Of a stretch of DNA of 61,068 nucleotides, positions 7-31,029 are shown piece after piece. Numbering within the stretch: position 1 is the first letter of the stretch; every line of letters begins with the position of its first letter. The notes beneath the pieces are model-generated. The model was given only the letters and a program-made list of their open reading frames with translations, was not told where the DNA came from and ran no database searches. Source of the DNA: Prevotella sp. (lineage in GTDB: Bacteria > Bacteroidota > Bacteroidia > Bacteroidales > Bacteroidaceae). Where the stretch lies: contig JAFYDA010000057.1 in NCBI GenBank assembly GCA_017545045.1, positions 1 through 61,068 on the forward strand. Direction: 5' to 3'. The position numbers and the translations under genes are program-made.

Positions 7-3000
7 TTAATAAAGTGGTTTCGGTGAACGTGAATGATTGTGAACAGCTTTGGTTCGACCCAGTGGCGTAATCGTCAGATTATCGAAATATGGTGTGCTC
101 ACCCGGCGTTGCTGCAGGGGTGCCATGATGCCTGCCATACCATGCTGATAGCGATCGGACGTGGCTCGAACCACCTGTTTGCCATCAACATAGCCGGTGA
201 TTTCGTCTCCCTCGAAACGCAGCTTCAGGTTGTGCCACTTTCCAGCAGTAATGCCCTGCACCTGTGCGCTGTCAAGCACATATTCGCCACCCACTTCGAT
301 GTCCTTACGGGCAAGTATGAGTGCCTGTTGCTCAGCATCGCCTATCAGCTCCTTTTGGTCGAGTTTTCCACGAGTTATATAAAGCTGGCACAGCCCGTGC
401 TCGTTTATCTTCAGATAGTAGCCCTTGGCCCAAACGCCATAGCCCGAGCCTACATCGCAGATACGCCCCATCACAGCGGCCTCGTCCTGAGGATTCAGCA
501 GCACATCGGCACTCACCTCGTAGTCGGTCCATGCCTCATCACCAATAATCGAGTAATGGTGCCACTCGGGTGCCCAACTGAGCGTGTGCTCACCAACAGT
601 TTGCTGCAGGCATGTGCCCGCCATGCCACCTGGTGCCTGGCGCAGCTCAAAGCATCCGATGATATCGGCCATATAATGAGGCAGATAGCCCCATTTTGAG
701 AGATGGTCATAATCCTCGTAGTTATCAACGTAGGGGATGGGGAACGAAGCAGGTGCAGGCACGCCAGCATAACTCCCCTTCTGCTGCCCACTGGTGGTTG
801 AGAGAGAATAAACACAGGCTGGATCTAACGTCATTGTTAAACTACGTGCCCGGGGCAACATATCGGCCTGACGCACAAACTGCTCCTGCTCGTTACTACG
901 CCACACGCAGAGTCTGGCTCCAGAAAGTTGTTTGGGCAAACTGATGCGTACTGTTTGCGGAGTGGTAGCATCTTTGGTTTCGATGATGATACTGTAGTCG
1001 TTGGTAGCCGGATTGCGCAGCATGCACATCGTACCACCTCCATAAAGTTTCAGGCAGCCATCATCAACGTATTGCCACCCAACCTCGGTAAACTGTCCGT
1101 AATGCGCATATCCCCAAAGCGATTCGCGCACGCTATAGTTACCACTCCATGGCTGTTGTGCTATCAGCATCGGGGGATCCTGACTATAAGGCTCCAATGG
1201 ATAGGTGGCGCCTATGTCGTACCAGTTGATAACCTTTGTTGCACCACTCACAATATAGTTCTCGTTAAAGCACTTCACGATAGTAATCAAACAGTCGAAC
1301 CCTTTGCGATACACGTGATCCTCGCTGTTCCAGATGGGTTTTCCCATCTTTTCGGCCATCGATCGCTGCTCGGCAGTAAGCGGTATCTCGCTGAATGTAT
1401 GGGCACTCACAGCATAGATAGCATCGCGCAACTCGGGGTCGCGCTCCATGTCTTTCATAAAATCCATCTTATTGGCTCCCCAGTTGTCGAAAGCATGAAG
1501 TTTTACGTTCTTAAATCCGCGCTCGTTCATGGTGCGGCGCAGCATCTTGGCAAAGTCGTTGCTCCACCCTTTCTCGTTATGGCAGCCAATGGCATTGAGT
1601 TCGAGCCCGTACTGCTGGCGCAAAGCTGTGAGCCAATCTACATAATAATCGGCCATGTGCTGCGACCAGAAATCGCCCACCCATCGCGGTGCACTCCAAC
1701 CCGTGGCATCAAGGTCGAGCTGGGGATTGCGGCTCTTGGCTTCGCGCAGCACCCACCAGGTATAGCCACGCTGAGCATCGAAATCGCCAAGATAGTGACT
1801 GTGCGAGGGCATGCTGCCCTGGGTACTGTTGCCATCGCCAGGAATCTCAACCAGCAACGAGCTGACCGAGGCGCCAAACTTGGGCTTATACACCAGGTCT
1901 AAAATCTGAGAGCGCTGGGGCTCGGGATAGTCTTTCAGCAGCACCGAAGTGGCGCCGCCACCATTAACGGCACCGATGCCATCGAACTTTTTCCCTTTGA
2001 GGGCCGACTGTATGCGTACCTGCTGCACGCGTGCTTTTGCTTTCGAAGCATAAGGTGTTTCGGACTTGGAAACGACCAGCTCGGAACCGAGGAACTGCTT
2101 CCAGAAATCGGGTGTATTGTTACTACCGAAAAGGAATGGTCCGGTCCAAGGAGCCACGTACAGCCATTTGGCGCCATCGCGCATCATGGCCTCGGCACTG
2201 GGCAGACAATCGCATTCGGCCAGCGCCAGCATCTTGTGGGGATATTTCCGGCTTAACAAATCATACTGCTCCTTATAGCTGCCATGATTAGTGGAGATAT
2301 GATACTGATCGCGAGCTACTATATCCACAAACTGATCGCCAGGATACCAGTCGTCGTCATCGAGTTCAGAGGTCCACACATAAATCAGGTTGTGCACGCC
2401 ATGACTCATCAAGTAACGCTGCATGAACAGATACAGCTGCTTGAAGGTGCTGGCACCATCACTACCCCACCAGAACCATGCGTTGCCACCACGGTTGGTA
2501 TTGCCAGCAGCCTCGTGAAACGGGCGCCAGATAATGGGGATGCCCTGCTTCTGGTAGTGAAGCAGCAAGCTGGTGATACGCTTCAGATCACGCATCAGCA
2601 CAGCATTCTCTGGCGTGCCTTGCTGCAGCGCCCTGCGCGGCGAGAATGTGGTGCCGCTTTGTGGTGTTTTGGCAGCCGAAGGCGTATAGAACGAATAGCC
2701 CTTGCTATCGGTCATCAACGTATCAACAGGCACACTCCAATGCCAAATAAAGCCTACAATACCCCCCGACTGATACCAATCCTTGGCTGTATCGGCCAGA
2801 TAGTTGACATGCTCCAGTCTGAAATGCTGGAAATCGAAGATATTCACTGCTGGATACTGACCTGTGCGTTTGCTTACTTCGTCGGCATCGGTCGTGTTAT
2901 AATCCCATCTGGCCTGACAACCAGACAATACCTTTTTGCCCCAAACATCGTTTCGCAGATAGTTGTACAAGCCAACAACCTGTTTGGTGGCTTTCTTATC

Positions 3001-3081
3001 TATCGGTTTTGGGGCTATCTGTGCCGACAGATGCAGCAGCGGCAGCACACTTAATAATAAAATACCACAAAATCTTCTCAT
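7..3081 (-). CDS. Secreted bifunctional glycosidase, GH26 mannanase-like plus GH59 galactocerebrosidase-like
   Basis: Two catalytic modules sit in one secreted chain. Numbering here runs from the longest frame (start 3108). A signal peptide ends near residue 30 (LLHLSAQ). GH26 spans about 37-345, with the acid/base in WRPFHE (E199) and the nucleophile in ALAECD (E298). GH59 begins about residue 374 with FDGIGAVNGGGATS, closely recalling animal galactosylceramidase; likely acid/base is E512 (CHNEKG) and nucleophile E596 (WNSEDH). The C-terminal 250 residues resemble the beta-sandwich/lectin part of that family. I chose the start at M10 because a TATATTTG promoter box at 3096-3103 lies inside the longer frame. 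Family membership is confident. The substrate, a beta-mannan carrying beta-galactosyl groups or two separate glycans, is inference. Confidence 0.85.
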   Translation of the reverse strand: MRRFCGILLLSVLPLLHLSAQIAPKPIDKKATKQVVGLYNYLRNDVWGKKVLSGCQARWDYNTTDADEVSKRTGQYPAVNIFDFQHFRLEHVNYLADTAKDWYQSGGIVGFIWHWSVPVDTLMTDSKGYSFYTPSAAKTPQSGTTFSPRRALQQGTPENAVLMRDLKRITSLLLHYQKQGIPIIWRPFHEAAGNTNRGGNAWFWWGSDGASTFKQLYLFMQRYLMSHGVHNLIYVWTSELDDDDWYPGDQFVDIVARDQYHISTNHGSYKEQYDLLSRKYPHKMLALAECDCLPSAEAMMRDGAKWLYVAPWTGPFLFGSNNTPDFWKQFLGSELVVSKSETPYASKAKARVQQVRIQSALKGKKFDGIGAVNGGGATSVLLKDYPEPQRSQILDLVYKPKFGASVSSLLVEIPGDGNSTQGSMPSHSHYLGDFDAQRGYTWWVLREAKSRNPQLDLDATGWSAPRWVGDFWSQHMADYYVDWLTALRQQYGLELNAIGCHNEKGWSNDFAKMLRRTMNERGFKNVKLHAFDNWGANKMDFMKDMERDPELRDAIYAVSAHTFSEIPLTAEQRSMAEKMGKPIWNSEDHVYRKGFDCLITIVKCFNENYIVSGATKVINWYDIGATYPLEPYSQDPPMLIAQQPWSGNYSVRESLWGYAHYGQFTEVGWQYVDDGCLKLYGGGTMCMLRNPATNDYSIIIETKDATTPQTVRISLPKQLSGARLCVWRSNEQEQFVRQADMLPRARSLTMTLDPACVYSLSTTSGQQKGSYAGVPAPASFPIPYVDNYEDYDHLSKWGYLPHYMADIIGCFELRQAPGGMAGTCLQQTVGEHTLSWAPEWHHYSIIGDEAWTDYEVSADVLLNPQDEAAVMGRICDVGSGYGVWAKGYYLKINEHGLCQLYITRGKLDQKELIGDAEQQALILARKDIEVGGEYVLDSAQVQGITAGKWHNLKLRFEGDEITGYVDGKQVVRATSDRYQHGMAGIMAPLQQRRVSTPYFDNLTITPLGRTKAVHNHSRSPKPLY

Positions 3082-3095
3082 AAATATTTTTTTTG

Positions 3096-3126
3096 CAAAT
3101 ATAGTCAATTATTTTAAAACTGCAAT
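3096..3126 (-). promoter_or_regulatory. Promoter of the GH26-GH59 gene
   Basis: On the minus strand TATATTTG (3096-3103) matches the Bacteroidetes -7 form TAnnTTTG, with ATTG (3123-3126) 19 bases upstream as an imperfect -33 box. The predicted transcription start near 3089 leaves a leader of about 8 nt before the ATG at 3081. Confidence 0.6.
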
Positions 3127-3214: not shown

Positions 3215-3421
3215 TTAACTCAACGTACAAGTATCAGCACAACTCTCACAGCTGTATTCAACCTGGTTTTTGATGTAAACACGGATACGGTCGCCCACCT
3301 TCGAATCGGGTTCGAGCATAATTTTGGGGTTCGTGCCACCTGCCACACGTACCTCTTTACTAAGATAGCCCACAAACGAAAAAATTCTTCTATATTCAAA
3401 AATAAAATCAGATATTACCAA
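3215..3421 (-). pseudogene. SusC/RagA N-terminal domain fragment
   Basis: A 68-codon frame contains FVGYLSKEVRVAGG followed by KIMLEPDSKVGD. This is the signature end of the carboxypeptidase-regulatory-like domain that precedes the TonB plug in SusC proteins (typical form: YIGYKTQEV..., LKEDTKxLDEVVV). Everything expected before it (signal peptide, rest of the domain) and after it (plug, barrel) is missing; the last 25 residues do not look like a SusC plug and end in CESCADTCTLS. I read it as the remnant of a SusC gene, probably once part of a locus with the adjacent GH26-GH59 gene. It could instead be a small protein that reuses the motif. A terminator follows at 3136-3174. Confidence 0.5.
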
Positions 3422-3501
3422 GCTGTCACTATATATTTATAAAGGTAAAAATGTCGTGATTAAATGAGAGAAATGAGAGCTCACAGACTTCTTTTCACGT
3501 G

Positions 3502-3621
3502 GAGCCTCCGCAGAATTACAGGGAGCCTCCACAGAAAAGTCCCACGGCCTGGGAAAAATGTCCCAAGGCCTGGGAAAAACACGCGGAGGCTCCACAGAAA
3601 TCTGCGGAGGCTCCTTTACAC
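3502..3621. repeat. 21-bp-periodic palindromic repeat array (left copy)
   Basis: GAGCCTCC occurs at 3502 and 3523. Its complement GGAGGCTC occurs at 3585 and 3606, again 21 bases apart. Between them lie two 21-bp units, GTCCCACGGCCTGGGAAAAAT-type, at 3539-3559 and 3560-3580. The outer arms are inverted, so the array could fold into a cruciform or hairpin. The same GAGCCTCC family recurs at 25730-25864. Confidence 0.8.
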
Positions 3622-3660
3622 AAACAGGAACAATTGCACAAGGATTTTCAAAAAAAATAT

Positions 3661-3755
3661 TTGACTGAAATTTGACTACTGAGAATCAGACAATTACAAA
3701 GATTTGACTATAAATCGACCACAGATTTGACTATAAATTGACTGTAAAATTGACT
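3661..3755. repeat. Six helically phased TTGACT boxes
   Basis: TTGACT starts at 3661, 3672, 3704, 3727, 3738 and 3750. The spacings are 11, 32, 23, 11 and 12, close to multiples of one helical turn, and several copies extend to TTGACTATAAAT. This could be a binding array for a DNA-binding protein on one helix face, or a decayed tandem repeat. It lies just downstream of the mutarotase gene. Confidence 0.6.
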
Positions 3756-3779
3756 ATAGAATTGCTTGAAAAGAGGTTG

Positions 3780-4157
3780 TTAGTCGTACAGTCTGAAGAT
3801 TTGTTCCATGGGTTGCCACTTCTCATCGCTGCGGGCATCGGCGGAACAGCCTTGGAACTTCGACACGAAGGCTTCCCACTCAGCCTGACGGGGCAGTGTG
3901 GCAAGCCGGTCCATCGCCTCACTCCAATTGAAATCTGCCGGCGTATCGACAATCATCACCAGCTTGCTACCCAGCATGTAGATTTCCATCTCGAGGATGC
4001 CTACAGCCCTGATGCCGTCGCGCACCTCTTTCCAATGGAATTCCTCGGAATGCCATTTACGGTATTGTGCCACGAGGTCGGGGACTTCACTGATTTCCAG
4101 GAACTGGACATAGCGTTTCAGTTTGCCTGCCGATATTTTCTGAACATATCCTTCCAT
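3780..4157 (-). CDS. L-rhamnose/L-fucose mutarotase family protein (DUF718)
   Basis: A 125-residue cytoplasmic protein of the RhaM/RhaU family, which interconverts alpha and beta anomers of 6-deoxy-hexoses such as rhamnose or fucose. Family features visible are the N-terminal RYVQFLEI strand, YRKWHSEEFHWKEV with the conserved Tyr/His/Trp environment, GILEMEIYMLGSKLVMIVD in the middle, and PRQAEWEAFVSKFQG at the end. Length matches the family (about 105-125). It is the last gene downstream of the SusC/SusD run but is separated from it by a terminator at 4184-4219, so it may be expressed by read-through or separately. Its presence hints that the imported glycan contains a deoxy-sugar; that link is inference. 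Which sugar it acts on cannot be told. Confidence 0.85.
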   Translation of the reverse strand: MEGYVQKISAGKLKRYVQFLEISEVPDLVAQYRKWHSEEFHWKEVRDGIRAVGILEMEIYMLGSKLVMIVDTPADFNWSEAMDRLATLPRQAEWEAFVSKFQGCSADARSDEKWQPMEQIFRLYD

Positions 4158-9431: not shown

Positions 9432-11243
9432 TTATCGTTGAATTATCCAAGCTCCTACAGGATGGTTGTCGCTCGGTACTCCGTGTGGCATCACCCAAAT
9501 GTAAGGAACTTCCTCAGGTACGTACAACGTTTCATGAGGCACAAGGAGGATACAGTCAATGCGCATGGTACGGGTGTACTGCTTGTTACGCTGTTGAGCG
9601 TTGCTTACACGCGTCTCTACCTTCAGCGTCACCTGCAGGTCTTCGTCATCTACACCATAGGTGCAATAGTCGAACTTATAGTCCTCTGCCAACAGCAGAT
9701 AGTCAATAGAGTCGGCTTTAGTGGTGTAGGTATCACCCAGCACCTCAGCATCCCGGCCAGGAGCCTTCAGCGTGCAACGCAGGATGGTCGGAACGCGCTG
9801 CTCGGCAGTAGCGTTACTGTCGTTGGCCAATGCCGGAACAGTGACGAGATAGATGTCATAGCCAATGTTGGAGAGCACATTCCTCAACGTGAATGTCACT
9901 GAATGGTTCACATTTGAGAAAGCAGGCGTAAACTCGACGAAAGCATTGTCCCAAATACGACCATAGAAATTCCTCATATCGGAATTGACAATACGCTGAT
10001 TGATGTCGATGGTACTGACGGAGTCGCCCTTGTCGACCACCTTACTGGTCTCCTTGATGCTGTTACGGCCCTCGGCCTGGATAATGCGCCACTGATGGAA
10101 GCTCATCAGTTTGTCAATATTCCACTGAGTAGCCTTGTGTACCTGACCGTTACTGCAAGGAACGATGTCATCAGCACTCTGATTCAGCACGCCAAAAGGA
10201 GAATCCAGCGGACGACGGTATTCATAGTACTCAAAAGGCAGACCTCCCCACGAAGCAAGGCGCATGGTGTAGTTACGGATACAGCTCTCTGACATGGCAG
10301 AGTCAGGCAGCGTAGCATCTGTATTGAAGGTACGACTGAAAGCCGTTCCGTTGATAATGGCCAGACGCGGCTGTGTGTAAGCCATGGAGTCGCGATCCTT
10401 ATAAGAAGGAGGATAGTTGAAATAGGGCTCATACTCCTCTATCAGCTGCTTCCATGTCGCATTCGTAGGAGCAAGGAAAATATAAGTACTGTCTTCTGTA
10501 TTCAACTGAGCATTGATCTGGCTGAAAAGTTCGTTACGCTGCGTAAAGACAGAATCCAGATACTGGGTCTTACCGTCGACGATACTACCTGCAACACTGC
10601 GCTCAGGCACAAATACTTTGTAATAGTAATGACTATTGTAGAAGAAACTGCGCAGACTGTCAAGATCAGGGTCTTTGCGCATGTACTCAAATACATTAGG
10701 CAGGAATTCAACCTTGTTCTTCAGCGTGAAGAGAACACCATTGCCATAAAGCTGGTTCTTGGTGAGCATCTCCACACCATCGATATTGTTGCCACCCAGA
10801 ACAGCATACTTACCGTTCATCAGCACAATAGAATCACGGCTGGCCGGCGACACGGAGTAGTTATACAAAGCCATGTGGTTTTGGATAAACTCCTTGATGA
10901 CGGTATTGTCCTCCTCTGTCACCTTGGCAGCATCCTGAGCCTTATATTCGCTAATCAGAGCTGCGGCCTCTTCGCTGCTGAAGTTGTCATTCGTAGGAGC
11001 GAAAACGGTGAACACCTGACTGCCATTGAGGTTCTTGGCATAGTCGCACTCCTCAATCACCTTGGCAAAATTGCTCAGGTTAGGATTACTCTTGATAGCC
11101 TGCCACAACGTGCCCTCATGCATATTACCACTTCCGAGACTCTCGTAGTGGTCATCCCACGTATCGGTGCAGGCCGTGAGGGCTGCGGCAATGCCGCAGC
11201 ACATCAGACCGACACTCAATACCTTATTTATCTTTGTAATCAT
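9432..11243 (-). CDS. Fasciclin (FAS1) domain lipoprotein, 603 residues
   Basis: A surface lipoprotein: the lipobox ALTAC ends at residue 25 and is followed by acidic TDTWDDHYE. Two FAS1 modules are visible. The first has FAKVIEECDYAKNLNGSQ followed by VFTVFAPTNDNF and later FIQNHMALYNYS. The second has YIFLAPTNATWKQLIEEYEP. FAS1 domains are known from adhesion proteins of many organisms and mediate protein-protein or protein-glycan contacts. The C-terminal 170 residues form an extra beta-rich part with no family I can name. The gene sits between another FAS1 gene and a SusC gene, in the position where SusE/SusF-type binding proteins occur, so an accessory ligand-capture role is inferred. Confidence 0.85.
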   Translation of the reverse strand: MITKINKVLSVGLMCCGIAAALTACTDTWDDHYESLGSGNMHEGTLWQAIKSNPNLSNFAKVIEECDYAKNLNGSQVFTVFAPTNDNFSSEEAAALISEYKAQDAAKVTEEDNTVIKEFIQNHMALYNYSVSPASRDSIVLMNGKYAVLGGNNIDGVEMLTKNQLYGNGVLFTLKNKVEFLPNVFEYMRKDPDLDSLRSFFYNSHYYYKVFVPERSVAGSIVDGKTQYLDSVFTQRNELFSQINAQLNTEDSTYIFLAPTNATWKQLIEEYEPYFNYPPSYKDRDSMAYTQPRLAIINGTAFSRTFNTDATLPDSAMSESCIRNYTMRLASWGGLPFEYYEYRRPLDSPFGVLNQSADDIVPCSNGQVHKATQWNIDKLMSFHQWRIIQAEGRNSIKETSKVVDKGDSVSTIDINQRIVNSDMRNFYGRIWDNAFVEFTPAFSNVNHSVTFTLRNVLSNIGYDIYLVTVPALANDSNATAEQRVPTILRCTLKAPGRDAEVLGDTYTTKADSIDYLLLAEDYKFDYCTYGVDDEDLQVTLKVETRVSNAQQRNKQYTRTMRIDCILLVPHETLYVPEEVPYIWVMPHGVPSDNHPVGAWIIQR

Positions 11244-11274: not shown

Positions 11275-13443
11275 TTACAGGTCATCTTCCATAGCGCCAT
11301 CGCTGTCTACACCATAAACGCTCTTCGGAACCATCTCCCAGAAGTCGAACATGAACTCGTTGTTATTACCCTGCTTACCATCGGAAGCCACGCGGAAACG
11401 CACGTAGTGGGGCTTTGTGGCATCGATGTAGCCTTGGTAAACAATCTTGCGGTGGGTACGCTCGTTACCTAAGAAGTAAGACTTGTTACCACCGGAACCG
11501 AAGTGATACATGCTTCGACCGTCACGATAGACACCAAGGTTCTTGAGAGTCTTCTGTTCCTCAGCCTTCTCTTCATCGGTCTTCTTCTTGTAGTCACCCA
11601 AGGACTCGTCGATGACGTAACGGTCACCCAGATAGGCCTCTGAGTTCAGGAACTTTGTCATGTCAACAGGGATTCCCTGAGGCACACCATCAAAGTAGCT
11701 CTGCATGACGCCACGGGTCTCGATAGCGCAGTAGCCTAAGCGCATCTGCCAGTCACCGCTGTAGGGTACGGGCGGGATGCGGAACGTCATGTCGTAGTCA
11801 CCGAAGAGGTTCCACTCATCACCCTGCCACGACCAGAAGTTACAGTGGGGACGACGCATCACCAGCTTACCGTTGTTATTGATGGTCACACCATCAAGAT
11901 AACCTTCGGGGAAGTAGTAGTTCTTACCGTTCTTAGGCTCGTTAGAGTCATCAGGCGTACTGTTCGGGTCGTCAACAGTGTAGTTACCCTTCAGACGCAT
12001 GTCGTTGGTCATGACCTCAGGCCAGATGGTCGAGAAGTCCATACGGATACGCTGGTTCTGCACCTTGTTCTGCACGTCGTAGCTGAACACCACGAGGTCG
12101 TCAACATAGAAATAGTGACCATTCAAGGCATCGTGGTTATACTCTGTCTCCACAGTATTGTCAACCAAAGCACCACGGAATTCATACTCAGGAGCTGCAT
12201 AGCGGCGGTTGATGAAGTGGCGGTTCACATAGGCAGCGTCAGCACCACGGCAGTCGTTGCCTTGCTCATCCTTGTTCATTGTGAGCTGCTCTATCTTCAG
12301 CATGGTCCAAGGCAGAAGCGTTGGATACCAGTCAATGGGGTTGATAAGCTTCGTATCAAATCCGAAGGCTTCTTTCGTCTCCTTGCAGACCAAGGCCGTC
12401 AGATCGCTGGTGCCCGGCACATAGCGAGTCATGATGTGATACTGCATGAAACGGTGCAGCGGGTTGACGCTGTCTGTCAGATTCTCAAAGCTATGACCAG
12501 CAGCACTTACGTCGCCAGGATAGACGGGGTCATATATCTTGCAGGCCAAATCATAGAGTGCGCGCAGATTACCATTGGCCGTGGAGATACCATACTCCTC
12601 GAACTTGGCTTTATAAACCGAGTCAGTCTCCACAAAGGCAGTAAAGCCATACTTACGCTTGCTGGGAGCCCATCCCACCTCATTCCAGGTGTGCGACTTG
12701 TAATAGTACTTAGGATGATCCCTGAAGTGATAATCAGGATCCTCAACCAGAAGAATCTGCTCGCGGACACCTGAAGCGACCAGTCCCTCATAGAAAATAC
12801 TGATAAGGGGATTGTCGCGCAAGATATCAGCAATATAGCTATTAGATTTCTCTATCACCATGTTCACAGGCTGAATGATACCGTTCTCAACGGAGTCGTT
12901 CTGGTGAACGATGATGGGGTTCTCACCCTTCTCATCATACAGGGTGTCACTGAAGAGGATATGAGCTGTTCCCTCCAGGAATACAACTGCATTGCTGTCA
13001 TTGTCAACACCCTGTGAGGTTGCCAGATAACGTCCCAGCATGTTTGCCGTAATCAGGCGGTCCTGATCCATCTCAAACGTGGAGTACATATTAGCCACCA
13101 AGTGGGTACGGGCAATGGTATCGCAGTCGGCGTCCGACAACTGATCGACACTCTGCAGCCCACGTTCTTTCAGGTACTCCTGAACTGCTTTGTTAGAAGG
13201 TAGGAAACAGGTGTACTGTCCGTAAGTGGAAAGCAAGTCCATCAGCTTGGCACGCTCCACAATCTTCGAAAAGTCGCTGTATTGTGCACGGTTCCTGATA
13301 TAGTCGCTCATCATCTCACCTGTAAACGTGTAGAAGTTCTGAGTGTCTGGCTCGTCAGAGCAACTTGTCAGCGGCCCCATGGCCAATGTAGTGGCCAGAG
13401 CCAAAAGTGCTACTCTTATTTTTCTCTTAATATTCATAGTCAT
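11275..13443 (-). CDS. Fasciclin (FAS1) domain lipoprotein, 722 residues
   Basis: Surface lipoprotein: lipobox PLTSC followed by SDEPD. The N-terminal third has FAS1 hallmarks (FSKIVERAKLMDLLSTYGQ, then YTCFLPSNKAVQEYL, then RTHLVANMYST). A second FAS1-like stretch follows (YIADILRDNPLISIFYEGLVASG). The C-terminal half is rich in Trp, Tyr and Asp (NFWSWQGDEWNLFGDYDMTFRIPP) and ends in a segment suggestive of a ligand-binding beta-sandwich (RKIVYQGYIDATKPHYVRFRVAS). Co-transcribed after the first SusD (19-base gap) and before the next FAS1 gene. M1 or M3 could be the start. Glycan binding is inference. Confidence 0.8.
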   Translation of the reverse strand: MTMNIKRKIRVALLALATTLAMGPLTSCSDEPDTQNFYTFTGEMMSDYIRNRAQYSDFSKIVERAKLMDLLSTYGQYTCFLPSNKAVQEYLKERGLQSVDQLSDADCDTIARTHLVANMYSTFEMDQDRLITANMLGRYLATSQGVDNDSNAVVFLEGTAHILFSDTLYDEKGENPIIVHQNDSVENGIIQPVNMVIEKSNSYIADILRDNPLISIFYEGLVASGVREQILLVEDPDYHFRDHPKYYYKSHTWNEVGWAPSKRKYGFTAFVETDSVYKAKFEEYGISTANGNLRALYDLACKIYDPVYPGDVSAAGHSFENLTDSVNPLHRFMQYHIMTRYVPGTSDLTALVCKETKEAFGFDTKLINPIDWYPTLLPWTMLKIEQLTMNKDEQGNDCRGADAAYVNRHFINRRYAAPEYEFRGALVDNTVETEYNHDALNGHYFYVDDLVVFSYDVQNKVQNQRIRMDFSTIWPEVMTNDMRLKGNYTVDDPNSTPDDSNEPKNGKNYYFPEGYLDGVTINNNGKLVMRRPHCNFWSWQGDEWNLFGDYDMTFRIPPVPYSGDWQMRLGYCAIETRGVMQSYFDGVPQGIPVDMTKFLNSEAYLGDRYVIDESLGDYKKKTDEEKAEEQKTLKNLGVYRDGRSMYHFGSGGNKSYFLGNERTHRKIVYQGYIDATKPHYVRFRVASDGKQGNNNEFMFDFWEMVPKSVYGVDSDGAMEDDL

Positions 13444-13462
13444 CTCTATTCAAAGTTCTACG

Positions 13463-15244
13463 TTATTTGGTCTTCTCATAACTGGTACTTTCACCACTGC
13501 CGAAGGCGGGATTAGGCACAAGATTACGGTTCACCTTCATTTCCTCATTATTGTAAGGCCAGAAGATGGCATCCATCTTCTTGAAGAAGTTCAGGGCGAA
13601 CTGCTTGTTGACGTCATCACGTCGCTGAGAAGCGGTAATGACGGCTTCCGTATTACCGGCACGCATGCAATAGCGAACCAGATCATACCAGCGCTTACCC
13701 TCAAACATCAGCTCGCGCTGACGCTCACGCTGTACAAGCTCGTCCATCAGGTTCTTGGTCGTATAGTCACCGAGCTTCAGGGTGTCGGCATCGGTAATCT
13801 TCGACTGTTCCTTGCAGATAGAGCGCTTGTTGATGGCGTTCACCAACTTAAAGGCTTGGTTCAGCAAAGGACGGTTGTTGGCAATAATGGCAGAGTCACT
13901 ACCCTCCTGCATCTTCTGGCAGAGTGCCTCAGCCTCCAACAGCATGATGTCGGGCAGACGGTAGATAATCCACTTCGATCCATTGTTGCTGGAACTGAAC
14001 AGTGAATATTCCACCTTTGGTGCCGTTGTATTAGAAGCATTCGTGGCATCAATCTCCACACTCTGAGCAGCAAACTTCTTGATTTCCTCCTTGTCAGCAT
14101 CACAGTTCTGATACAGGCGAGCATCAATCTTCTTATTCTTGTCATCGAAAATGACTCTGCCCGAAGTGGTGGAGATATCTTCTGTCACTGCTGTCGACGG
14201 AGATAGCAGACCTTTCGTTGTATTACTGCTACCATAGAGCGAGGTAATAGCCGAGTTGTTAGGATACTGGTCGGAAGAACTTGGTGAGTCGTTATAGCTC
14301 AACTCAAAAATGGTTTCCTTGCTTGCACCAGTGACAAAGATCGACCTATAGGCCTCACCGAATCTGTTACCAGTCAGGTTATCAGCCACCAAGGGATAGC
14401 CGTTCAGGCGTGCATCCATCAGCACAGTGGCCGAACCACTCTGCCTCTTTCCGTTCTTCTGACGGTTTTCTTCCTCTATTTCCGTCAGATTCTGAATGAC
14501 CAGCTCTGCATAGCGGATGCAGTTGTCGTAGTCCTTCTTCCAGAGATACATCTCACAAAGCATTGCATAAATGGCATTCTTCGTGATGCGTCCCGTCTGA
14601 TAGAGCGGCTTATCCTCTGGATAGCGGTTCACGGCGTCATCCTTAATGCTCTCCAAATCCTTAATCAGGTTGTCGAGCACTGTCTCAAACGGCGTAGCGG
14701 GTAAGTCCATCACCTGGTTATCGTCCGTAAATGCCTCCGTTGAATAAGGTACATCTCGGAAGGTACGAATCAGGTAGAAATAGCACAGGTCACGCAGGGC
14801 AGACACCTCAGCAACGGTTGCCTTCAGGTCGCCATCAGTATATCCTGGGTCAATGGCAGCCACGCCTGGTGCATACTTCAAGACCGTGTTACAACGGTTA
14901 ATCACATCATAGAAGCCATCCCAGGTCGTGTAACCATTCATGGCCGTAATGTTCTCTTTCAGGATGTTGTACAGGTTGACATCGTTGTTGATATTCTCAC
15001 CTGACATGATGTTGTCGCTGCGTACTTCGCCCCAGATCATCATACGCTTTCTGACTCCATCGGCTAAGAGTGCCGAATAGCAGCCACTGACGACATTGTC
15101 GACGTCGGCCTTCTCATTCCAGAAATCTTCAAGCACAATCTCACTCGTTGACTTGATTTCCAGATAATCGCCACAGGAAACCATGCCAGCGGCTAAGCAG
15201 ACAGCACCTATTATATTATAATATGTCTTTCTCATAATCTTCAA
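13463..15244 (-). CDS. SusD/RagB-family lipoprotein (first pair)
   Basis: Glycan-capture lipoprotein paired with the SusC gene 25 bases upstream. Lipobox GMVSC then GDYLEIKSTSE, a very common SusD start. Helical repeats include VVSGCYSALLADG, WDGFYDVINRCNTVLKYAP and EVSALRDLCYFYLIRTFRDVPYSTEAF. The C-terminal signature is QRERQRELMFEGKRWYDLVRYCMR, and the protein ends around an IFWPYNNEEMKVNRNLVPNPAF segment, typical of full-length SusD proteins (593 residues). The start could be M1 or M4. Confident family call; ligand unknown. Confidence 0.95.
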   Translation of the reverse strand: MKIMRKTYYNIIGAVCLAAGMVSCGDYLEIKSTSEIVLEDFWNEKADVDNVVSGCYSALLADGVRKRMMIWGEVRSDNIMSGENINNDVNLYNILKENITAMNGYTTWDGFYDVINRCNTVLKYAPGVAAIDPGYTDGDLKATVAEVSALRDLCYFYLIRTFRDVPYSTEAFTDDNQVMDLPATPFETVLDNLIKDLESIKDDAVNRYPEDKPLYQTGRITKNAIYAMLCEMYLWKKDYDNCIRYAELVIQNLTEIEEENRQKNGKRQSGSATVLMDARLNGYPLVADNLTGNRFGEAYRSIFVTGASKETIFELSYNDSPSSSDQYPNNSAITSLYGSSNTTKGLLSPSTAVTEDISTTSGRVIFDDKNKKIDARLYQNCDADKEEIKKFAAQSVEIDATNASNTTAPKVEYSLFSSSNNGSKWIIYRLPDIMLLEAEALCQKMQEGSDSAIIANNRPLLNQAFKLVNAINKRSICKEQSKITDADTLKLGDYTTKNLMDELVQRERQRELMFEGKRWYDLVRYCMRAGNTEAVITASQRRDDVNKQFALNFFKKMDAIFWPYNNEEMKVNRNLVPNPAFGSGESTSYEKTK

Positions 15245-15269
15245 TTTTCTTTTTCAGTCTTCAATGCCT

Positions 15270-18200
15270 TTAGAAATCAAACGTGACACCCAGTGTGTAA
15301 GAACGTGAACGCGGCGTCTGAGACCAGTCAATAGCGGGATCCTCACCACCGAATGCGATATCCGGGTCAACACCAGAGTACTTGGTCAGCACGAACGGGT
15401 TGTTGATACTGGCATGGAACCTGATTGCATTCAAGCCGATAGCCTTCACGATTTTCTTGTTGAGAGAGTATGTCAGCTGTGCATAGCTCATACGCAGATA
15501 GTCACCATCCTCAACGAAGCGGTCGCTGATCAGTGTATTGTAGTTGCTGGTAGAACCGAACATAGCTCGAGGGATGCTGGTCACGTCGCCTTCCTTACGC
15601 CAGCGGTAGTTCACTGCCTGACTCTGGTTGTCGTTACCAGTCATAGCTTCTGCCTGCAGACGGGCCTTGTTGATAATCTTATTACCCAAACGATAGGTAA
15701 ACTGTGTGTTCAGACGCCAGTCGCCATAGTTGAACGAGAAGCCGAAACCACCAGTAAGTTTAGGCAGTGACGAGCCTAAGTAGGTAATATCGAGGGCGTT
15801 AATCTGGCCGTCGTGGTTGATATCTTCATAGATGGCATCACCACCATTGAAACCAGGATAAGAACCGTCGTGACCCGTACCGTCGACACGATAATCATAA
15901 CGCATGCGCAGAGGCACGTTATTGGCGTCAAGGATGACCTGACCGTCAGCGTTTACAGCGACAGGAGCCGTTTTACCAGCTGCCTTGAACTCATTCCAGT
16001 AAGCATATATCTGCTCCTGAGTCATGCCTGCAACAGCATTCTTGAAGGTGTTGTAGTTATACTGATAAACACCCTTGTACTTGAAGCCATAGATAGCACC
16101 GAACGGATTGTGCAGCTGCACACGACGCAGCGTCTCACCGTTGGCATAGCCATAAGTAGAGTTCTTGTTTTCCAGAATGTACTCATCCATCTCCAGGATT
16201 TCGTTGCGGTTGTTACCGAAGTTAGCGTTAACATCCATTGAGAACTTACCAGCCTTGACCACGCGGTTAGAGTTGATATGGAACTCCCAACCCGTGTTAC
16301 GCATCTTACCGTTGTTATGATAAGGAACTGTGGTAAAACCAGAGTTCGATGGTATACGGAAGTTGGACATCAACATGTCCGAACGCGTAGTGCTGTATGC
16401 CTCGATGGTCAGGTTCAGACGACCGTCGAAGAATCCTAAGTCGATACCGCCATTGTAGCTCGTGATAACCTCCCACTTCATGTCAGTCAGACGGATATTC
16501 AACGGCTTCACACCAGGCATATCAATATATGTCGTATTGGTGGAACCGTACTTAGAAGTGTACAGGTAGTTCTGCCCCGGCTGGTTACCGTTACGTCCCC
16601 AACCTGGACGTATGGCGAAGAATGATAGTGCGGGCTTCAGTTTCTGCATCCACGGCTCGTCACTGATAATCCACTTCAACGACACCGAGGGGAAGTAACC
16701 CCAACGGTTACCGGGACCGAACTTAGTCGTACCGTCAATACGGACGGTGGCATCAAGGACGTAGCGGCCTTTATAGGCATAGTGTCCAGAGAACGTGTAA
16801 TACATGGAACGTGACTGGCCGTAGCTGGAGCTGGGCTTGTCAATCAGACCGCCTGCAGCAGGACGGATGATAGCACCGTTTGTTGAAGGCAGGCCGTAAC
16901 CTGATGTGGACTGGCTGCTTGAAGAACCTGTGTTCAACTCAAAGCGTCCCAACAGCATGGCCTGATGATCCTTGTTCTTGAACGAAGGCGTCAGCGTCAG
17001 AGAATGCTTGGTATTGAAATTCACGCTCTTAGACGACCCCGTCGAAGAGGTGTTCACCTTGTCTTCCCAACGCACGGTCTTCAACTCCTGTGGATAGAAC
17101 GAATCGGTGTAATAGTTTGAAATATTCATGTAGACCGATCCGCGGTAGTCCAACTGCCAGTGGTCCTCGTCAAGTCCCAGAAGACGATAGTTCATCACCA
17201 GTTCGGGGTTCATGTCATAATTACGCGACTCGTTCTTAGCCAGATGAGCTGATGCCACGGGATTAACGTAAGTACGCTGATCGCTGGCAAACACTTCTGA
17301 ACCGATGTAGGGTCCGCTCTGAATCATGTTGTAATACTTGTCGGTGTTCTCACCTGTGACAGGATCCTTCTCATAGATGCTCATGTTAGGCATCTTCTTC
17401 AGTGCGATGGCCAACAGGTCGTCAGAGTTGCGTTCGTTCTTGGTATAGGTCAGTGCGAAGTTCGTCTGCACACGGATACGCTCACTGACATTATAGTCCA
17501 AGTTAACACGGGTAGAGAAACGGTTGAGTCGCTGCTCAATCATGGTACCCGTCTCATGGTCGTAACCGCCACTGATACGGAAGGTAGCTTTCTCACCACC
17601 ACCACTGATGGTCACATAGTGGTTCTGTCGCAGACCAGTCTGCGTGACGGCATCACGCCAGTCGGTGTTGTCGCGATACTGTCGCCACTCTGAGAAGCCA
17701 CCCGTCTCGTCCAGATAGTTGATTTCCGGAATGCGGTTCTGGTCAGAGGCGTTGTCATCCTGACGGGGATTGAAGTAAGCCTCCTTCAGCATCATCGTGT
17801 AGTCGTCACCGCTCAGCAGGTCATAACCCTTGGGCTGATGAGTGGCAGTAAGACGCAGCTGGTAGGTCACATGCGGACGTCCACGGACACCACGCTTGGT
17901 TGTCAGCTCGATGACACCGTTACCACCTTGCGAACCATAGATGGCACAGGCGGCAGCATCCTTCAACACGTTGATAGAAGCAATATCCTCAGGGTTGATG
18001 TTCAGCAGTTCTGCAAATTTCTCATTATTGGCACCTTGCATGTCGAATCCTGAAAGGTCTACATTACGGATATTACCGTCGACCACAATCAGCGGGTTCG
18101 AATCTGTCAGCGTTGACAGTGAACCGGCACCGCGCAGACGCATGGTAGAACCAGATCCAAGGTCACCAGAATTACCGATGATGTCAAGACCTGCGATACG

Positions 18201-18677: not shown

Positions 18678-21437
18678 TTATTTTTTAAGTGCCTCTTTCA
18701 CTACTTCTCTCCAGGGCTTCATCGTATCCGAGAACAGCACGCCGTCAATCTGATGAACGACGACATCGCTACCCATGAACAGGCGTTGGTTGTTACCAGC
18801 ACCCTGGAACCAGTACTCACGGCAGATAATGTTATAAAGTCCAGGCTTTGTCACCACATTGCGGACGTTACCAATATTGTCGGTAACGGTCAGCGACGTA
18901 GCAGTCGACTTTGCTGTCAAAGGATAGAAGCGACCAGTCGTCAAGTTACGCTTCATGCTCTCATACTTGCCGGGATGTGTCGGGTCTACGGCCATACCCA
19001 CGGCCAGCGAGTTATCCTGCACATGGTAACGTACAAAGTCAGTCACAATACCCTTAATAGCTGTTTCAACTTTCTTTCTGATGGTGGCACGGTCGCCGAG
19101 TTCATACCATCCTTCTTTCAGGCATATACTGTCGATGACCTCGTCATCGTCACCCATTTCCAGTTCCTTGTCGGTAGGCAAGTATCCGTCAGCCTGCAGC
19201 TTTCGGATGCTCTCGTTCGTGGGAATATACACCGTATAATTATAGTTGTCAAACAGTTTGAGGTTCTTGTTGGCTTTTGCAGCCAGACCAGGATTATACT
19301 TGTTGCTCAGCTTCTGTGTCAGCAGGTCGCAATAGTCATTTTCCAGAATGGTCAGGAAAGCCGAGAACGCCTCATTCTTCTGCAAGGTCATATAAAGAGA
19401 ATTCTGAGCGGTCATCGGCACCTCTGTCTCTATCTGATATGACACACCATTGTATTTCGGATAACGCTGTACTGACGGTATTGGACGATCGTTGTGCTCA
19501 ATCTGCCAGCCGCCTTCGAATACTAACTGACCGTCGGCACCTTTCGTCACACGAATCATGTTGCCGCCTTTGGTCTTGAAGTAATTGATGTTCTCGCCGA
19601 TATAGTCCTCCAACGTCTTGGTCTTGTCGGGAATGACGATGATCAGTTCATTCATCAGGTTTTCAAGCAGGGACTTGATGACATCATTACCCACCTGTCG
19701 CTGCTTAGGCGTATCACTGTACTTGACAATGTTACCATCCTTATCAACCGTTGTCTGATAACGGATGGCCTGCACACGCTGTGCAAAGCCTTTCGTCATG
19801 TCGTAGCTAAACTCTATCAGGTCGGGAGACTCTACCGTTGCGCTGTCGGCACCACTCTGGTCTTTCAGCTGCATCTCTGTACCATAGGAAGAAGGATCGA
19901 GCGTGGTCAGCATGGCGTTGTTCGTAGGAATAATCAGCGCATATTTAGAGTCCATAGACAGCAGATAAGGCAGGAAGTTCAGTTCGGCAACAGCCTTACC
20001 GGTCTCACCGCCACTCAGTGCCCAATAGATGACGTTCATGGTAGATGCGTGTGCCAGTGCCGGATAGGCCACCGACGAATACTCGGCAGGTGTAAACACC
20101 TTATTGGTCAAGTATACCACACCGTTACAACCCATAAAGCACGAGTCGACATCAGCCGTGGTGATACCTAAGGACTCCTTGGCATCGTTCAACACATTGG
20201 CGAACTTTGTAGGCACAGCCTCCGAGAATGTCGACAACATGTTCACTCTGAGAAGTTTCGACAGGGTAGCATCAGGAATGGAGTCCCATACCTTATACTC
20301 GTCCTGGAGGTCGCTTCCCTCACCGTTCCACCATGCCTCCAATGCCTCATTCGTAGGAACGATCATGGCACCAGCGTCGTAGTGCAGGTCATTGTTGTTG
20401 GCAGAGTTGGCGTCGATATACTGGTTCCAACCCGGGTCGAAACTCAACGAGCCCTTTACGGGATCACCGTTCGGGTCGCGCTCCAAAGCGTTGCCACCGG
20501 CCGAACGGTCGCTGAAGTAACGAAGCACGAAGACGGAGTCCTCATTATTATAAATACGGTTATACTCACGCGTGAGTGAAGCATCATAGTAAGGAGCCGA
20601 GAAGCGGTCCAACAAATGACTCCACAACGACATGTTGGCATGTGAGCGGATGATTTCAGCCATGTTGGGCGACGACTCGATGACACCCGACACTTTCTGG
20701 ATGTAACCATTCTTACACGTGATGTCACGTTCAACCACCTTCTTGCCATTCACCCATGCGTCAGCAATGCTGGTAGAACCGCCATTGGTAAGCACCATCA
20801 GGTCTTCGTCCTTAATTTTGTTATACTGCATGTAGGCAGGCAGGAAGTGGATCATCGGTGCTGCCGTAGCGTCCTTGAACAATGGCATAGCCTTACCGCG
20901 CTCCCTGAACTCATCCCAGTAGATGGTGTTAGGCATCTTGTCTACAGGCATGACATACACTGAGTCGTAAATACTCAATGCCGTCTCACGGCGCATTGTA
21001 CGTCCCTCTTCAGGAGTGGCAGCGTCACCCTGCGCCTTGGCATTCGACATCAACTCAATCAGATACGCATTGTTAATCATTGAGTTGTTCAACAATAGCT
21101 TCTTCTGTGCAGTAGACAATTGCCCATAGTTCCTGACGCCCCAAGAGTTTGTCTTGAACCATACGTCGTACGCACTGTCGGAAGCCGCAAACAATGTCTT
21201 AGAACCCGTGTGACTGAACACCTCTTTCAGGCCCAAGTCATCGATGAGCTTCAAGGTGGTAGTGTAAGTACCCTCATCTTGTAAGCGCTCATAGATGGAG
21301 TTGCCTAACCACGACGGCTGGCCGGTAAGTATCAGGTCGTTGTCCTCACAGGACGTTAGTGACCAGACACCCATCAGCAAGCCGCAAGCAGCCAGTGCCA
21401 CTCGTCGTCCTTGTCTTACGATTTGTCTTTGTTTCAT
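18678..21437 (-). CDS. Multi-FAS1 surface lipoprotein, 919 residues
   Basis: First gene of the packed SusCD run. Lipobox WSLTSC then EDNDLI. Four FAS1-type motifs can be placed: KTLFAASDSAYDVWF (about residue 80), AMIVPTNEALEAWW (about 355), YALIIPTNNAMLTTL (about 490) and YTVYIPTNESIRKLQ (about 725), the last followed by the conserved FVRYHVQDNSL. It therefore looks like an array of four fasciclin modules on a lipid anchor, much longer than its two FAS1 neighbours. No catalytic motif was noticed. Probably a cell-surface adhesin or an extended ligand-binding component for the adjacent importer; that role is inference. No TAnnTTTG box was found directly upstream, so promoter type is unclear. 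Confidence 0.82.
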   Translation of the reverse strand: MKQRQIVRQGRRVALAACGLLMGVWSLTSCEDNDLILTGQPSWLGNSIYERLQDEGTYTTTLKLIDDLGLKEVFSHTGSKTLFAASDSAYDVWFKTNSWGVRNYGQLSTAQKKLLLNNSMINNAYLIELMSNAKAQGDAATPEEGRTMRRETALSIYDSVYVMPVDKMPNTIYWDEFRERGKAMPLFKDATAAPMIHFLPAYMQYNKIKDEDLMVLTNGGSTSIADAWVNGKKVVERDITCKNGYIQKVSGVIESSPNMAEIIRSHANMSLWSHLLDRFSAPYYDASLTREYNRIYNNEDSVFVLRYFSDRSAGGNALERDPNGDPVKGSLSFDPGWNQYIDANSANNNDLHYDAGAMIVPTNEALEAWWNGEGSDLQDEYKVWDSIPDATLSKLLRVNMLSTFSEAVPTKFANVLNDAKESLGITTADVDSCFMGCNGVVYLTNKVFTPAEYSSVAYPALAHASTMNVIYWALSGGETGKAVAELNFLPYLLSMDSKYALIIPTNNAMLTTLDPSSYGTEMQLKDQSGADSATVESPDLIEFSYDMTKGFAQRVQAIRYQTTVDKDGNIVKYSDTPKQRQVGNDVIKSLLENLMNELIIVIPDKTKTLEDYIGENINYFKTKGGNMIRVTKGADGQLVFEGGWQIEHNDRPIPSVQRYPKYNGVSYQIETEVPMTAQNSLYMTLQKNEAFSAFLTILENDYCDLLTQKLSNKYNPGLAAKANKNLKLFDNYNYTVYIPTNESIRKLQADGYLPTDKELEMGDDDEVIDSICLKEGWYELGDRATIRKKVETAIKGIVTDFVRYHVQDNSLAVGMAVDPTHPGKYESMKRNLTTGRFYPLTAKSTATSLTVTDNIGNVRNVVTKPGLYNIICREYWFQGAGNNQRLFMGSDVVVHQIDGVLFSDTMKPWREVVKEALKK

Positions 21438-26102: not shown

Positions 26103-26117
26103 ATTCTTTTTTTTTTG

Positions 26118-26125
26118 TACATTTG
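26118..26125 (+). promoter_or_regulatory. Promoter -7 box of the ATPase/RloB-like pair
   Basis: TACATTTG matches TAnnTTTG; no good -33 box is present. The predicted start near 26132 excludes an in-frame upstream ATG at 26115 and supports translation from 26151. Confidence 0.6.
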
Positions 26126-26150
26126 CAGCAGAATCAACAAAGAAATAGTT

Positions 26151-27254
26151 ATGCTTATCAAATTTGCTGTAAAGAACTTCCGAGGTTTTGCTGAGAGAAT
26201 AGAGTGGGATTTGTCCCATCCCAGTAATTATGAGTTTAACAAATATGCTGTTAAAGATGGCATTATCAAGAATGGTATCATATACGGTCCTAATGGCTCT
26301 GGAAAGTCAAATTTTGCTTTGGCAATCTTCGACATTGTCTATCATTTGACGCAAAAATTCAAGAAAGGGGACTTCTATAAAGACTACGTGTATGGAGGGG
26401 ATCCAAAAGGAAAAGTTCTGTTTGAATATACCTTCAAGTTCGGTTCTCAAATTGTGGAATATAGCTACGGCAAAAATATGCTCGGCATGCTGTATGCAGA
26501 ATCATTGTCAGTCGACGGTGTAAATGCGTTTAGACGCGAGTTCGACAAATTAGAACTTGACGGAAAGCAGTTCCCCATCAATGCAGATGCCAAAAAGAAT
26601 CTTCAGGCTAATGCGAACAATATCTCCATTGTAAATTATCTGCTTACTTCTTATCCTCTATCCAAGAGCCACTATCTTATTCTCTTGCGTGATTTTGTTA
26701 ATTCTATGTTATGGTTCCGCAGTCTCAAGGCCAATGAGTATATAGGATTAGATAATAGTATTACGCAATTAGACGAATACATCATTCAAAACAAATTAGT
26801 AGAGGATTTTGCAGTATTTCTTAAAAATGTCAGTGGTCAAGACTTTATATTCGTAAAGCCTAATTCCACCGATAAGTTTCTTGCATGTAAATTCAAATCT
26901 GGAATTGTATTGTTTGATGATATCGCCTCTACTGGTACTCTTTCGCTAGAAGTCCTCTATTACTGGCTAAAGAAAATGAGCAATGCTTCATTCGTTTTCA
27001 TTGATGAATTTGATGCCTTCTATCACTTCAAATTAGCTTTTGAGGTTTGCAAGCAGCTGTTCAATCTCAACTGTCAGGTGTTTACGTCATCACATAATAC
27101 TTATTTGATGACTAATGACTTGCTACGACCAGACTGCAACTTCATTTTGCAGGACAATACAATCAAACCACTACAAGCCTGCACAGAAAAAGAACTCAGG
27201 TTTGGACATAACATAGAGAAAATCTATAGAGCAGGAGCATTCCATGTTGAATAA
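26151..27254 (+). CDS. AAA-type ATPase, RloA/AriA-like (candidate defence sensor)
   Basis: A 367-residue ATPase beginning MLIKFAVKNFRGF, the usual first strand of AAA_15/AAA_21 (SMC/ABC-like) ATPases. The Walker A is GPNGSGKS (about 46-53). The Walker B is FVFIDEFDAF (about 280-289), followed by the H-loop region VFTSSHNTYLMTN. The middle is a helical insert. Such ATPases act with a partner nuclease or TOPRIM protein in anti-phage systems (RloA/RloB, PARIS AriA/AriB, Septu, Retron-linked pairs). It overlaps the next gene by 11 bases, so the two are translationally coupled, and both lie next to a restriction-modification pair. It is AT-richer than the carbohydrate genes on either side, suggesting transfer. 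The defence role is inferred from family and context. Confidence 0.8.
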   Translation: MLIKFAVKNFRGFAERIEWDLSHPSNYEFNKYAVKDGIIKNGIIYGPNGSGKSNFALAIFDIVYHLTQKFKKGDFYKDYVYGGDPKGKVLFEYTFKFGSQIVEYSYGKNMLGMLYAESLSVDGVNAFRREFDKLELDGKQFPINADAKKNLQANANNISIVNYLLTSYPLSKSHYLILLRDFVNSMLWFRSLKANEYIGLDNSITQLDEYIIQNKLVEDFAVFLKNVSGQDFIFVKPNSTDKFLACKFKSGIVLFDDIASTGTLSLEVLYYWLKKMSNASFVFIDEFDAFYHFKLAFEVCKQLFNLNCQVFTSSHNTYLMTNDLLRPDCNFILQDNTIKPLQACTEKELRFGHNIEKIYRAGAFHVE

Positions 27255-28035: not shown

Positions 28036-28039
28036 CAAT

Positions 28040-28156: not shown

Positions 28157-28167
28157 ACACCTAATAA

Positions 28168-31017: not shown

Positions 31018-31029
31018 ACAAATAAAGCT

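What the first reader, a model, noticed from the sequence alone, without database searches (positions are those of the whole stretch)
7..3081. GH26 and GH59 catalytic modules fused in one secreted enzyme
Both modules keep apparent catalytic glutamates (E199/E298 and E512/E596 in the longest frame). GH59 is best known from animal galactosylceramidase, and its bacterial members are little studied. A fusion to a beta-mannanase suggests a two-step attack on a galactosylated beta-mannan, or GH59 members with plant-polysaccharide activity.
Basis: partly seen in the sequence, partly recalled or inferred. Interest (0 to 1): 0.75.

Follow-up and report, generated by a model that had tools for sequence, protein, structure and literature searches.

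The report
Mannanase fused to GH59 beta-galactosidase-like enzyme
A Prevotella-like bacterium makes one exported protein that joins a plant-mannan-cutting enzyme to a relative of the animal enzyme lost in Krabbe disease, and gene neighbourhoods in related bacteria suggest that the second half trims beta-galactose from a plant cell-wall mannan.

Summary
One uninterrupted frame (minus strand, 7-3081, 1024 aa) holds a GH26 module, a complete GH59 module and the GH59 lectin-like C-domain, with the catalytic glutamates kept. The fusion is not a private artefact: full-length orthologues occur in Prevotella sp. P6B1 (85% identity), RUG765 (85%) and Xylanibacter ruminicola SIG140 (99%), inside a polysaccharide locus with SusC/SusD genes, GH27 alpha-galactosidase and a second GH26. 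In relatives GH59 is mostly a separate gene, often in beta-mannan loci; 20 of 80 named loci show the opposite fusion, GH59-GH26, with another GH26. A syntenic locus without GH59 carries a GH2 beta-galactosidase-like gene. Best reading: an exported two-module enzyme for galactosylated (gluco)mannan, GH59 removing terminal beta-galactose, most plausibly the beta-1,2-Gal cap of eudicot beta-galactoglucomannan, so that GH27 can remove alpha-Gal and GH26 cut the backbone. Activity is inferred, not shown. GH59s outside this clade sit elsewhere (GH115/GH43 neighbours; GH28 or rhamnosidase-like partners), so the mannan link belongs to one clade. New variant of a known kind; no paper that I opened or saw listed links GH59 to mannan.

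The parts
7..3081 (-). GH26-GH59 fusion gene, 1024 aa from ATG at 3081; stop at 7-9
   Evidence: full-length orthologues L089-L091
3019..3081 (-). signal-peptide-like N-terminus (residues about 1-21), no lipobox match
   Evidence: sequence; lipobox pattern scan; cleavage site is my inference
2140..3000 (-). GH26 catalytic module (residues 28-314)
   Evidence: PF02156 E 4.9e-38; same place
2512..2514 (-). GH26 acid/base E190 (WRPFHE)
   Evidence: position; role assigned from the family motif (recalled)
2215..2217 (-). GH26 nucleophile E289 (LALAEC)
   Evidence: position; role assigned from the family motif (recalled)
2017..2046 (-). short linker (residues about 346-355): two stand-alone GH26 relatives end at about this point, and stand-alone GH59s have their signal peptide here
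   Evidence: junction comparison with L085, L086, L061, L118, L096
1093..1986 (-). GH59 catalytic module (residues 366-663)
   Evidence: PF02057 E 9.5e-85; GALC best fold match, TM 0.82 by target length
1573..1575 (-). GH59 acid/base E503 (= GALC E182)
   Evidence: alignment; 92 of 92 rows; GALC role from PMC4445328 (passage)
1321..1323 (-). GH59 nucleophile E587 (= GALC E258)
   Evidence: alignment; 92 of 92 rows; GALC role from PMC4445328 (passage)
382..660 (-). GH59 C-terminal lectin-like domain (residues 808-900)
   Evidence: PF21708 E 4e-12
3257..3309 (-). remnant of the IPT/TIG lipoprotein gene that precedes the fusion gene in L089-L091

Best explanation
The gene encodes an exported, bimodular glycoside hydrolase of a galactosylated (gluco)mannan utilisation locus. 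The N-terminal GH26 module cuts beta-1,4-mannosyl backbone bonds; the C-terminal GH59 module is a retaining exo-beta-galactosidase that takes terminal beta-galactose off the side chains of the same oligosaccharides. The most likely substrate is eudicot beta-galactoglucomannan (beta-GGM), whose side chain is beta-Gal-(1,2)-alpha-Gal-(1,6)-Man: GH59 removes the outer beta-Gal, GH27 of the same locus can then remove the exposed alpha-Gal, and the GH26s shorten the bare backbone. Shown: the fusion, intact catalytic residues, the repeated GH59-GH26 linkage and fusion. Inferred: both activities, the order of steps, the beta-1,2 linkage and a periplasmic site.
For: Domains and catalytic residues. Positions equivalent to GALC G48, T93, W135, N181, E182, E258 are identical in 92 of 92 rows, and W291 in 91 of 92, the window included; PMC4445328 credits W291 with specificity for galactose over glucose (passage). 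Nearest solved GH26s are beta-mannanases PbGH26-GH5A and BoMan26B. Orthologous locus in P6B1: SusD, SusC, SusD, TIG lipoprotein, GH26-GH59, GH27, GH26. Loci L061 and L063 hold between them epimerase, GH26-acetyl esterase, GH26, GH59 (alone or as GH59-GH26), GH27-GH26, GH36, GH130 and a sugar transporter. Reverse fusion GH59-GH26 in 20 of 80 named loci. Of tree-clade members with at least 7.9 kb held on both sides 29 of 34 have GH26 nearby, against 1 of 17 outside the clade. In 15 GH59 genomes that I picked, 35 of 46 GH26 genes lie within about 10 kb of GH59, fused ones included (my count). The syntenic locus L085 lacks GH59 and has a GH2 gene whose four best solved relatives are named beta-galactosidase; L086 has the same type of GH26 beside such a GH2; no GH59 match at E 1e-20 in either genome, 87% and 86% complete. 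The side chain of beta-GGM is established (PMC9614514, passages; PMC10735049, start of abstract and passages). The window's genome has a further mannan-type locus with GH26, GH130, a GH5 and an epimerase-like frame (epimerase by eye).
Against: No activity or expression data. Two GALC contacts are not kept across the family: S261 is V here and in 72 of 92 rows, and the R380 position, R in the window, is R in only 16 of 92 and K in 41; these lie in less similar stretches, so alignment error is possible, but pocket specificity may differ from GALC. 13 of 64 clade members have no GH26 in the DNA held, five of them with at least 7.9 kb on both sides. GH59s outside the clade sit beside GH115 or GH43 or are fused to GH28, rhamnosidase-like, MGH1-like or esterase modules, so GH59 is not intrinsically a mannan enzyme. 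The GH2 replacement rests on two loci. In the window the gene is cut off from its locus: only a TIG remnant remains upstream, the contig ends downstream, and the GH27-GH26 stretch was not found elsewhere in this incomplete genome.
Confidence: 0.6

Rival explanations
1. GH59 is a beta-galactosidase for arabinogalactan or pectin side chains, and its joining to GH26 only reflects co-digestion of mixed cell-wall material.
For: Outside the mannan clade GH59 lies beside GH115 or GH43 (L054 = L092, L153, L156) or is fused to GH28 or rhamnosidase-like modules (L155, L160). L137 (Phocaeicola plebeius, same contig as L067), with GH115 and GH43 neighbours, falls inside the mannan clade on the tree.
Against: Of 64 clade rows only L137 has a GH115 or L067-type GH43 hit in the DNA held, while 51 have GH26; fusion to GH26 exists in both orders with different GH26s.
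Confidence: 0.2
2. The GH59 module has shifted to another glycosidic bond of the glucomannan itself (beta-glucosidase or beta-mannosidase), still exo-acting.
For: GH30 enzymes and glucocerebrosidase follow GALC in the fold search; the S261 contact is lost and the R380 position varies in the family.
Against: W291, which PMC4445328 credits with galactose specificity (passage), is kept in 91 of 92 rows and six other galactose-site residues in 92 of 92; the syntenic GH59-less locus has a beta-galactosidase-type GH2.
Confidence: 0.08
3. The fusion is a chance product in one lineage or an assembly artefact without function.
For: The window lies in a 59%-complete draft and its locus is broken; a 99.8% identical copy in G197 has lost most of GH26 in frame.
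Against: Same full-length fusion in three other genomes, including P6B1 on a 232 kb scaffold; the five GH26-GH59 rows form one clade, SH-aLRT 100.
Confidence: 0.05

Closest known systems
GH59 galactocerebrosidase (mouse GALC, 3zr5/4ccc)
   Same: Full GH59 profile match, catalytic Glu pair, equivalents of G48, T93, W135, N181 and W291, C-terminal lectin domain, best fold match.
   Different: Bacterial, fused to GH26, orthologues placed with plant-mannan genes; S261 position differs; nothing suggests a lipid substrate.
Bacterial GH59 annotated as beta-galactosidase or galactosylceramidase, e.g. in bifidobacteria (PMC8151561, PMC8143103; passages) and an SLH-anchored Paenibacillus GH59 (PMC4765114, passage)
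   Same: Same family; beta-galactosidase is already the usual annotation.
   Different: No mannan context or GH26 fusion is mentioned in the passages seen; I saw no test of their activity there.
Prevotella bryantii PbGH26-GH5A and Segatella copri GH26|GH5_4
   Same: Bimodular GH26 enzymes of related bacteria; the P. bryantii GH26 is the closest solved relative; the S. copri one acts in a glucomannan locus (PMC12704710, passages).
   Different: Second module there is GH5; here GH59. GH59 does not occur in that paper's main text.
Bacteroides ovatus beta-mannan locus with GH36 (PMC5094572, search listing only; GH26 and GH130 recalled)
   Same: Enzyme set for backbone and alpha-Gal of galactomannan.
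   Different: As I recall it, that locus has no GH59.
GH35 beta-1,2-galactosidase Bxy_22780 (PMC11739564, abstract and passages)
   Same: A Bacteroides enzyme for beta-1,2-linked galactose.
   Different: Other family; its locus has GH144. The paper calls GH59 a family of galactosylceramidases.

Membership tests
GH59 | Match to the family profile over its cut-off, full length | tested here: met
   284.9 bits against 27, profile 1-294 of 294
GH59 | Acid/base and nucleophile glutamates at GALC E182 and E258 | tested here: met
   E503 and E587; 92 of 92 rows; numbering mapped by hand from the alignment
GH59 | GALC-like fold with lectin domain | tested here: met
   PF21708; Foldseek 3zr5 E 3.7e-43, TM 0.82 by target; model mean pLDDT only 61.6
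GH59 | All GALC galactose contacts kept (bears on specificity; not a definition of the family) | tested here: not met
   S261 is V590 in the window; R380 is R712 here but varies in the family
GH59 | Beta-galactosidase activity | not testable with these tools
   needs an enzyme assay
GH26 beta-mannanase | Match to the family profile over its cut-off | tested here: met
   131.7 bits against 20.2, profile 2-284 of 311
GH26 beta-mannanase | Catalytic glutamate pair | tested here: met
   E190 in RPFHE and E289 in ALAEC
GH26 beta-mannanase | Endo-mannanase activity | not testable with these tools
   inferred from nearest solved mannanases
Beta-mannan polysaccharide utilisation locus | SusC/SusD pair with mannan enzymes around the gene | tested here: inconclusive
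   met in orthologous loci L089-L091; in the window the locus is truncated on both sides

The most novel reading that the evidence does not exclude
A clade of Bacteroidota GH59 enzymes has become the dedicated beta-1,2-galactosidase for beta-galactoglucomannan, a recently described eudicot cell-wall polymer, and has been joined directly to a mannanase at least twice, in opposite orders and with different GH26 partners. This would give the Krabbe-disease enzyme family a plant-mannan role and supply a bacterial enzyme for removing the beta-Gal cap.
Probability: 0.45. Interest if true: 0.72.

Novelty: new variant of a known kind. Interest (0 to 1): 0.58.

Why it matters
GH59 is best known through animal galactosylceramidase; in the papers that I opened, bacterial members are only named beta-galactosidase or galactosylceramidase in surveys. 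The gene contexts give a specific, cheap prediction for one clade: a beta-galactosidase for beta-galactoglucomannan side chains. If right, it explains how rumen and gut Bacteroidota open a eudicot hemicellulose, gives plant biologists an enzyme where a fungal GH35 is now used (PMC9614514, PMC10735049), and gives a bacterial model of the GALC active site.

Tried and rejected
Frameshift or private assembly artefact: rejected because of L089-L091. Chance linkage of GH59 and GH26: with 1-5 GH26 genes per genome of about 2.5-3.7 Mb in 15 genomes, a random 22 kb stretch would hold one in a few per cent of cases (my estimate); observed 48 of 80. Family-wide mannan role for GH59: rejected, see the outside branches. 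A test whether more distant GH26 relatives (43-49% identity, nine loci L168-L176) also sit with a beta-galactosidase gave nothing: no GH59 hit, and no GH2 hit except a 24% one at the edge of L176. Weak GH59-profile hits in relatives (28 places in 15 of 60 genomes at E 0.001, all but the window's own at 20-69 bits) I took for kin families such as GH30 and dropped; the control set also rang in two genomes. The whole-protein model has a poor GH26 half (pLDDT mostly under 50), so I draw nothing about the orientation of the active sites. Alignment A3 misaligned GH26-only rows to GH59 and was discarded; A2 was used only for identities. In plasmids 0 of 21 matching records cover 80% of the protein.

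Caveats on counts: the 80 named loci are the best 80 of 174 and lean to close relatives; flanks vary from 0 to 10 kb; hits were taken at tblastn E 1e-12, so distant GH27 or GH26 count too; 35 further fetched loci (L053-L087) added 11 distinct GH59 rows, making 91, and the tree has 92 with the window. The 64-row clade was read off a quick tree (SH-aLRT 89) after the fact and rows are related, so the Fisher value is only descriptive.

Full report
What is there. The minus-strand frame 7-3108 is open throughout; from the ATG at 3081 it gives 1024 aa. Pfam finds GH26 (28-314, E 4.9e-38), GH59 (366-663, E 9.5e-85, whole profile) and the GH59 C-terminal lectin domain (808-900, E 4e-12), each over its cut-off. 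The N-terminus looks like a signal peptide without a lipobox. In GH59, positions equivalent to GALC G48, T93, W135, N181, E182 and E258 are identical in 92 of 92 rows and W291 in 91 of 92; S261 is replaced (V in 72 of 92) and the R380 position varies (R in the window) (numbering mapped by hand from the alignment). PMC4445328 (passages) names these as galactose contacts, as the two catalytic glutamates and, for W291, as the source of galactose specificity.

The fusion is real and inherited. The window is contig C2 of a 59%-complete draft genome, the stop 6 nt from the contig end. Full-length orthologues occur in L091 (Xylanibacter ruminicola SIG140, a MAG, 99%), L090 (Prevotella sp. P6B1, 85%, a 232 kb scaffold whose title bears no MAG or 'uncultured' label, so I take it for an isolate) and L089 (RUG765, 85%). 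A fourth copy, L088 (the contig of G197), is 99.8% identical in DNA over 2231 bases but has lost most of GH26 in frame, with different upstream DNA and a GH27 fragment downstream. On a quick tree of 92 GH59 rows the five form one clade (SH-aLRT 100). The junction is compact: stand-alone GH26 relatives L085 and L086 end at about the residue where the fusion has some ten linker residues, and stand-alone GH59s have their signal peptide there.

Where it belongs. In P6B1 the gene follows SusD, SusC, SusD and an IPT/TIG lipoprotein and is followed by GH27 and another GH26; L089 and L091 have the same order. The window keeps only a 53-base remnant of the TIG gene (3257-3309) and then an unrelated locus; the GH27-GH26 part was not found elsewhere in this genome. 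Whether this is a rearrangement or a misassembly is open.

How common. In 399 same-family genomes the protein gave GH59-part matches in 33 by my count, the window's included; 25 of the 33 lie in open frames of 681-767 aa, that is, separate genes or the truncated G197 copy. In a sample of 395 genomes of the phylum 3 match the GH59 profile at E 1e-30: the window's, one of its genus and one of another family.

The GH59-GH26 pair is recurrent. Of 80 named loci (the best 80 of 174), 48 have a GH26 hit in the DNA held, 34 GH27/GH36, 24 GH130, 25 the 2-epimerase; 4 have GH26 fused before GH59 (one truncated) and 20 have another GH26 fused behind it. Loci L061 and L063 contain between them epimerase, AraC regulator, GH26-acetyl esterase, GH26, GH59 (alone in L061, GH59-GH26 in L063), GH27-GH26, GH36, GH130 and a sugar transporter. 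In the clade that holds the window (SH-aLRT 89), 51 of 64 other rows have GH26 nearby, 29 of 34 among those with at least 7.9 kb on both sides; outside it 1 of 27, and 1 of 17. In 15 GH59 genomes that I picked, 35 of 46 GH26 genes lie within about 10 kb of GH59 (my count); in one of the 15 (G364) none does.

A natural replacement. G393 (L085) has the orthologous locus (SusD 83%, SusC 73%, SusD 78%, GH27 86%, GH26 75% and second GH26 55% identity to P6B1), without GH59 but with a GH2 gene whose four best solved relatives are named beta-galactosidase. L086 has a GH26 67% identical to the window's beside a GH2 60% identical to that of L085. Neither genome, 87% and 86% complete, has a GH59 match at E 1e-20. 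Two cases only, but they point to a beta-galactosidase role for GH59.

Mechanism. Beta-galactoglucomannan of eudicots carries beta-Gal-(1,2)-alpha-Gal on mannose of an alternating Glc-Man backbone; workers remove it with a fungal GH35 beta-galactosidase and a GH27 alpha-galactosidase after CjMan26A or GH5 mannanase (PMC9614514, passages; PMC10735049, abstract start and passages). The gene set here is the matching bacterial one: GH26, GH59, GH27. I therefore propose that GH59 removes the beta-1,2-Gal cap. This is inference from context; linkage, order and location are untested.

Limits. Outside the clade GH59 sits beside GH115 or GH43 (L054 = L092, L153, L156) or is fused to GH28, rhamnosidase-like, MGH1-like or esterase modules; L137 of Phocaeicola plebeius (same contig as L067), with GH115 and GH43 neighbours, even falls inside the clade. 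GH59 seems to be a general exo-enzyme for beta-galactosylated plant glycans, mostly used on mannan in one clade. The structure model confirms a GALC-like GH59 half but not the GH26 half.

Novelty. Ten searches of the held library showed, in titles and abstract starts, no paper linking GH59 to mannan or describing a GH26-GH59 protein. 29 papers hold both 'GH59' and 'mannan', 20 of them listed. I opened 15 papers, by outline or passages only, none in full; where they mention GH59 it is as a survey entry, as galactosylceramidase or beta-galactosidase, in a reference, or by accident of spelling. Subscription papers, CAZy itself and preprints were not searched.

Noticed in passing
L088 5187-7445 (G197:C23): Near-identical copy of the gene with most of GH26 deleted in frame, different DNA from 23 nt before the ATG upward, and a GH27 fragment downstream, in a genome classed in another genus: transfer, misbinning or misassembly.
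   Followed up: partly
window 3257-4157: The mannan locus upstream of the fusion gene is replaced: only the end of a TIG lipoprotein gene remains, then an L-rhamnose mutarotase-like gene (3780-4157) and another locus.
   Followed up: partly
window 4239-25525 (-): Two SusC/SusD pairs interleaved with three fasciclin-domain proteins (9432-11243, 11275-13443, 18678-21437), and a 1285-aa protein without a Pfam match at E 0.01 at 21668-25525.
   Followed up: no
window 26115-33078 (+): Four-gene restriction-type cluster: AAA ATPase, unknown 263 aa, ResIII helicase with a sub-threshold VRR_NUC match, N6/N4 DNA methylase.
   Followed up: no
L153, L155, L160, L094: GH59 fused to other modules: MGH1-like, GH28, alpha-rhamnosidase-like, and an N-terminal esterase.
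   Followed up: partly
L177 (G000:C83) 11415-17334: A mannan-type locus elsewhere in the same genome: GH5, GH26, GH130 and an epimerase-like frame (by eye).
   Followed up: partly
L061 12949-15180: GH27 alpha-galactosidase fused to a GH26: the same type of GH26 module is attached to GH27 in some genomes and to GH59 in others.
   Followed up: partly
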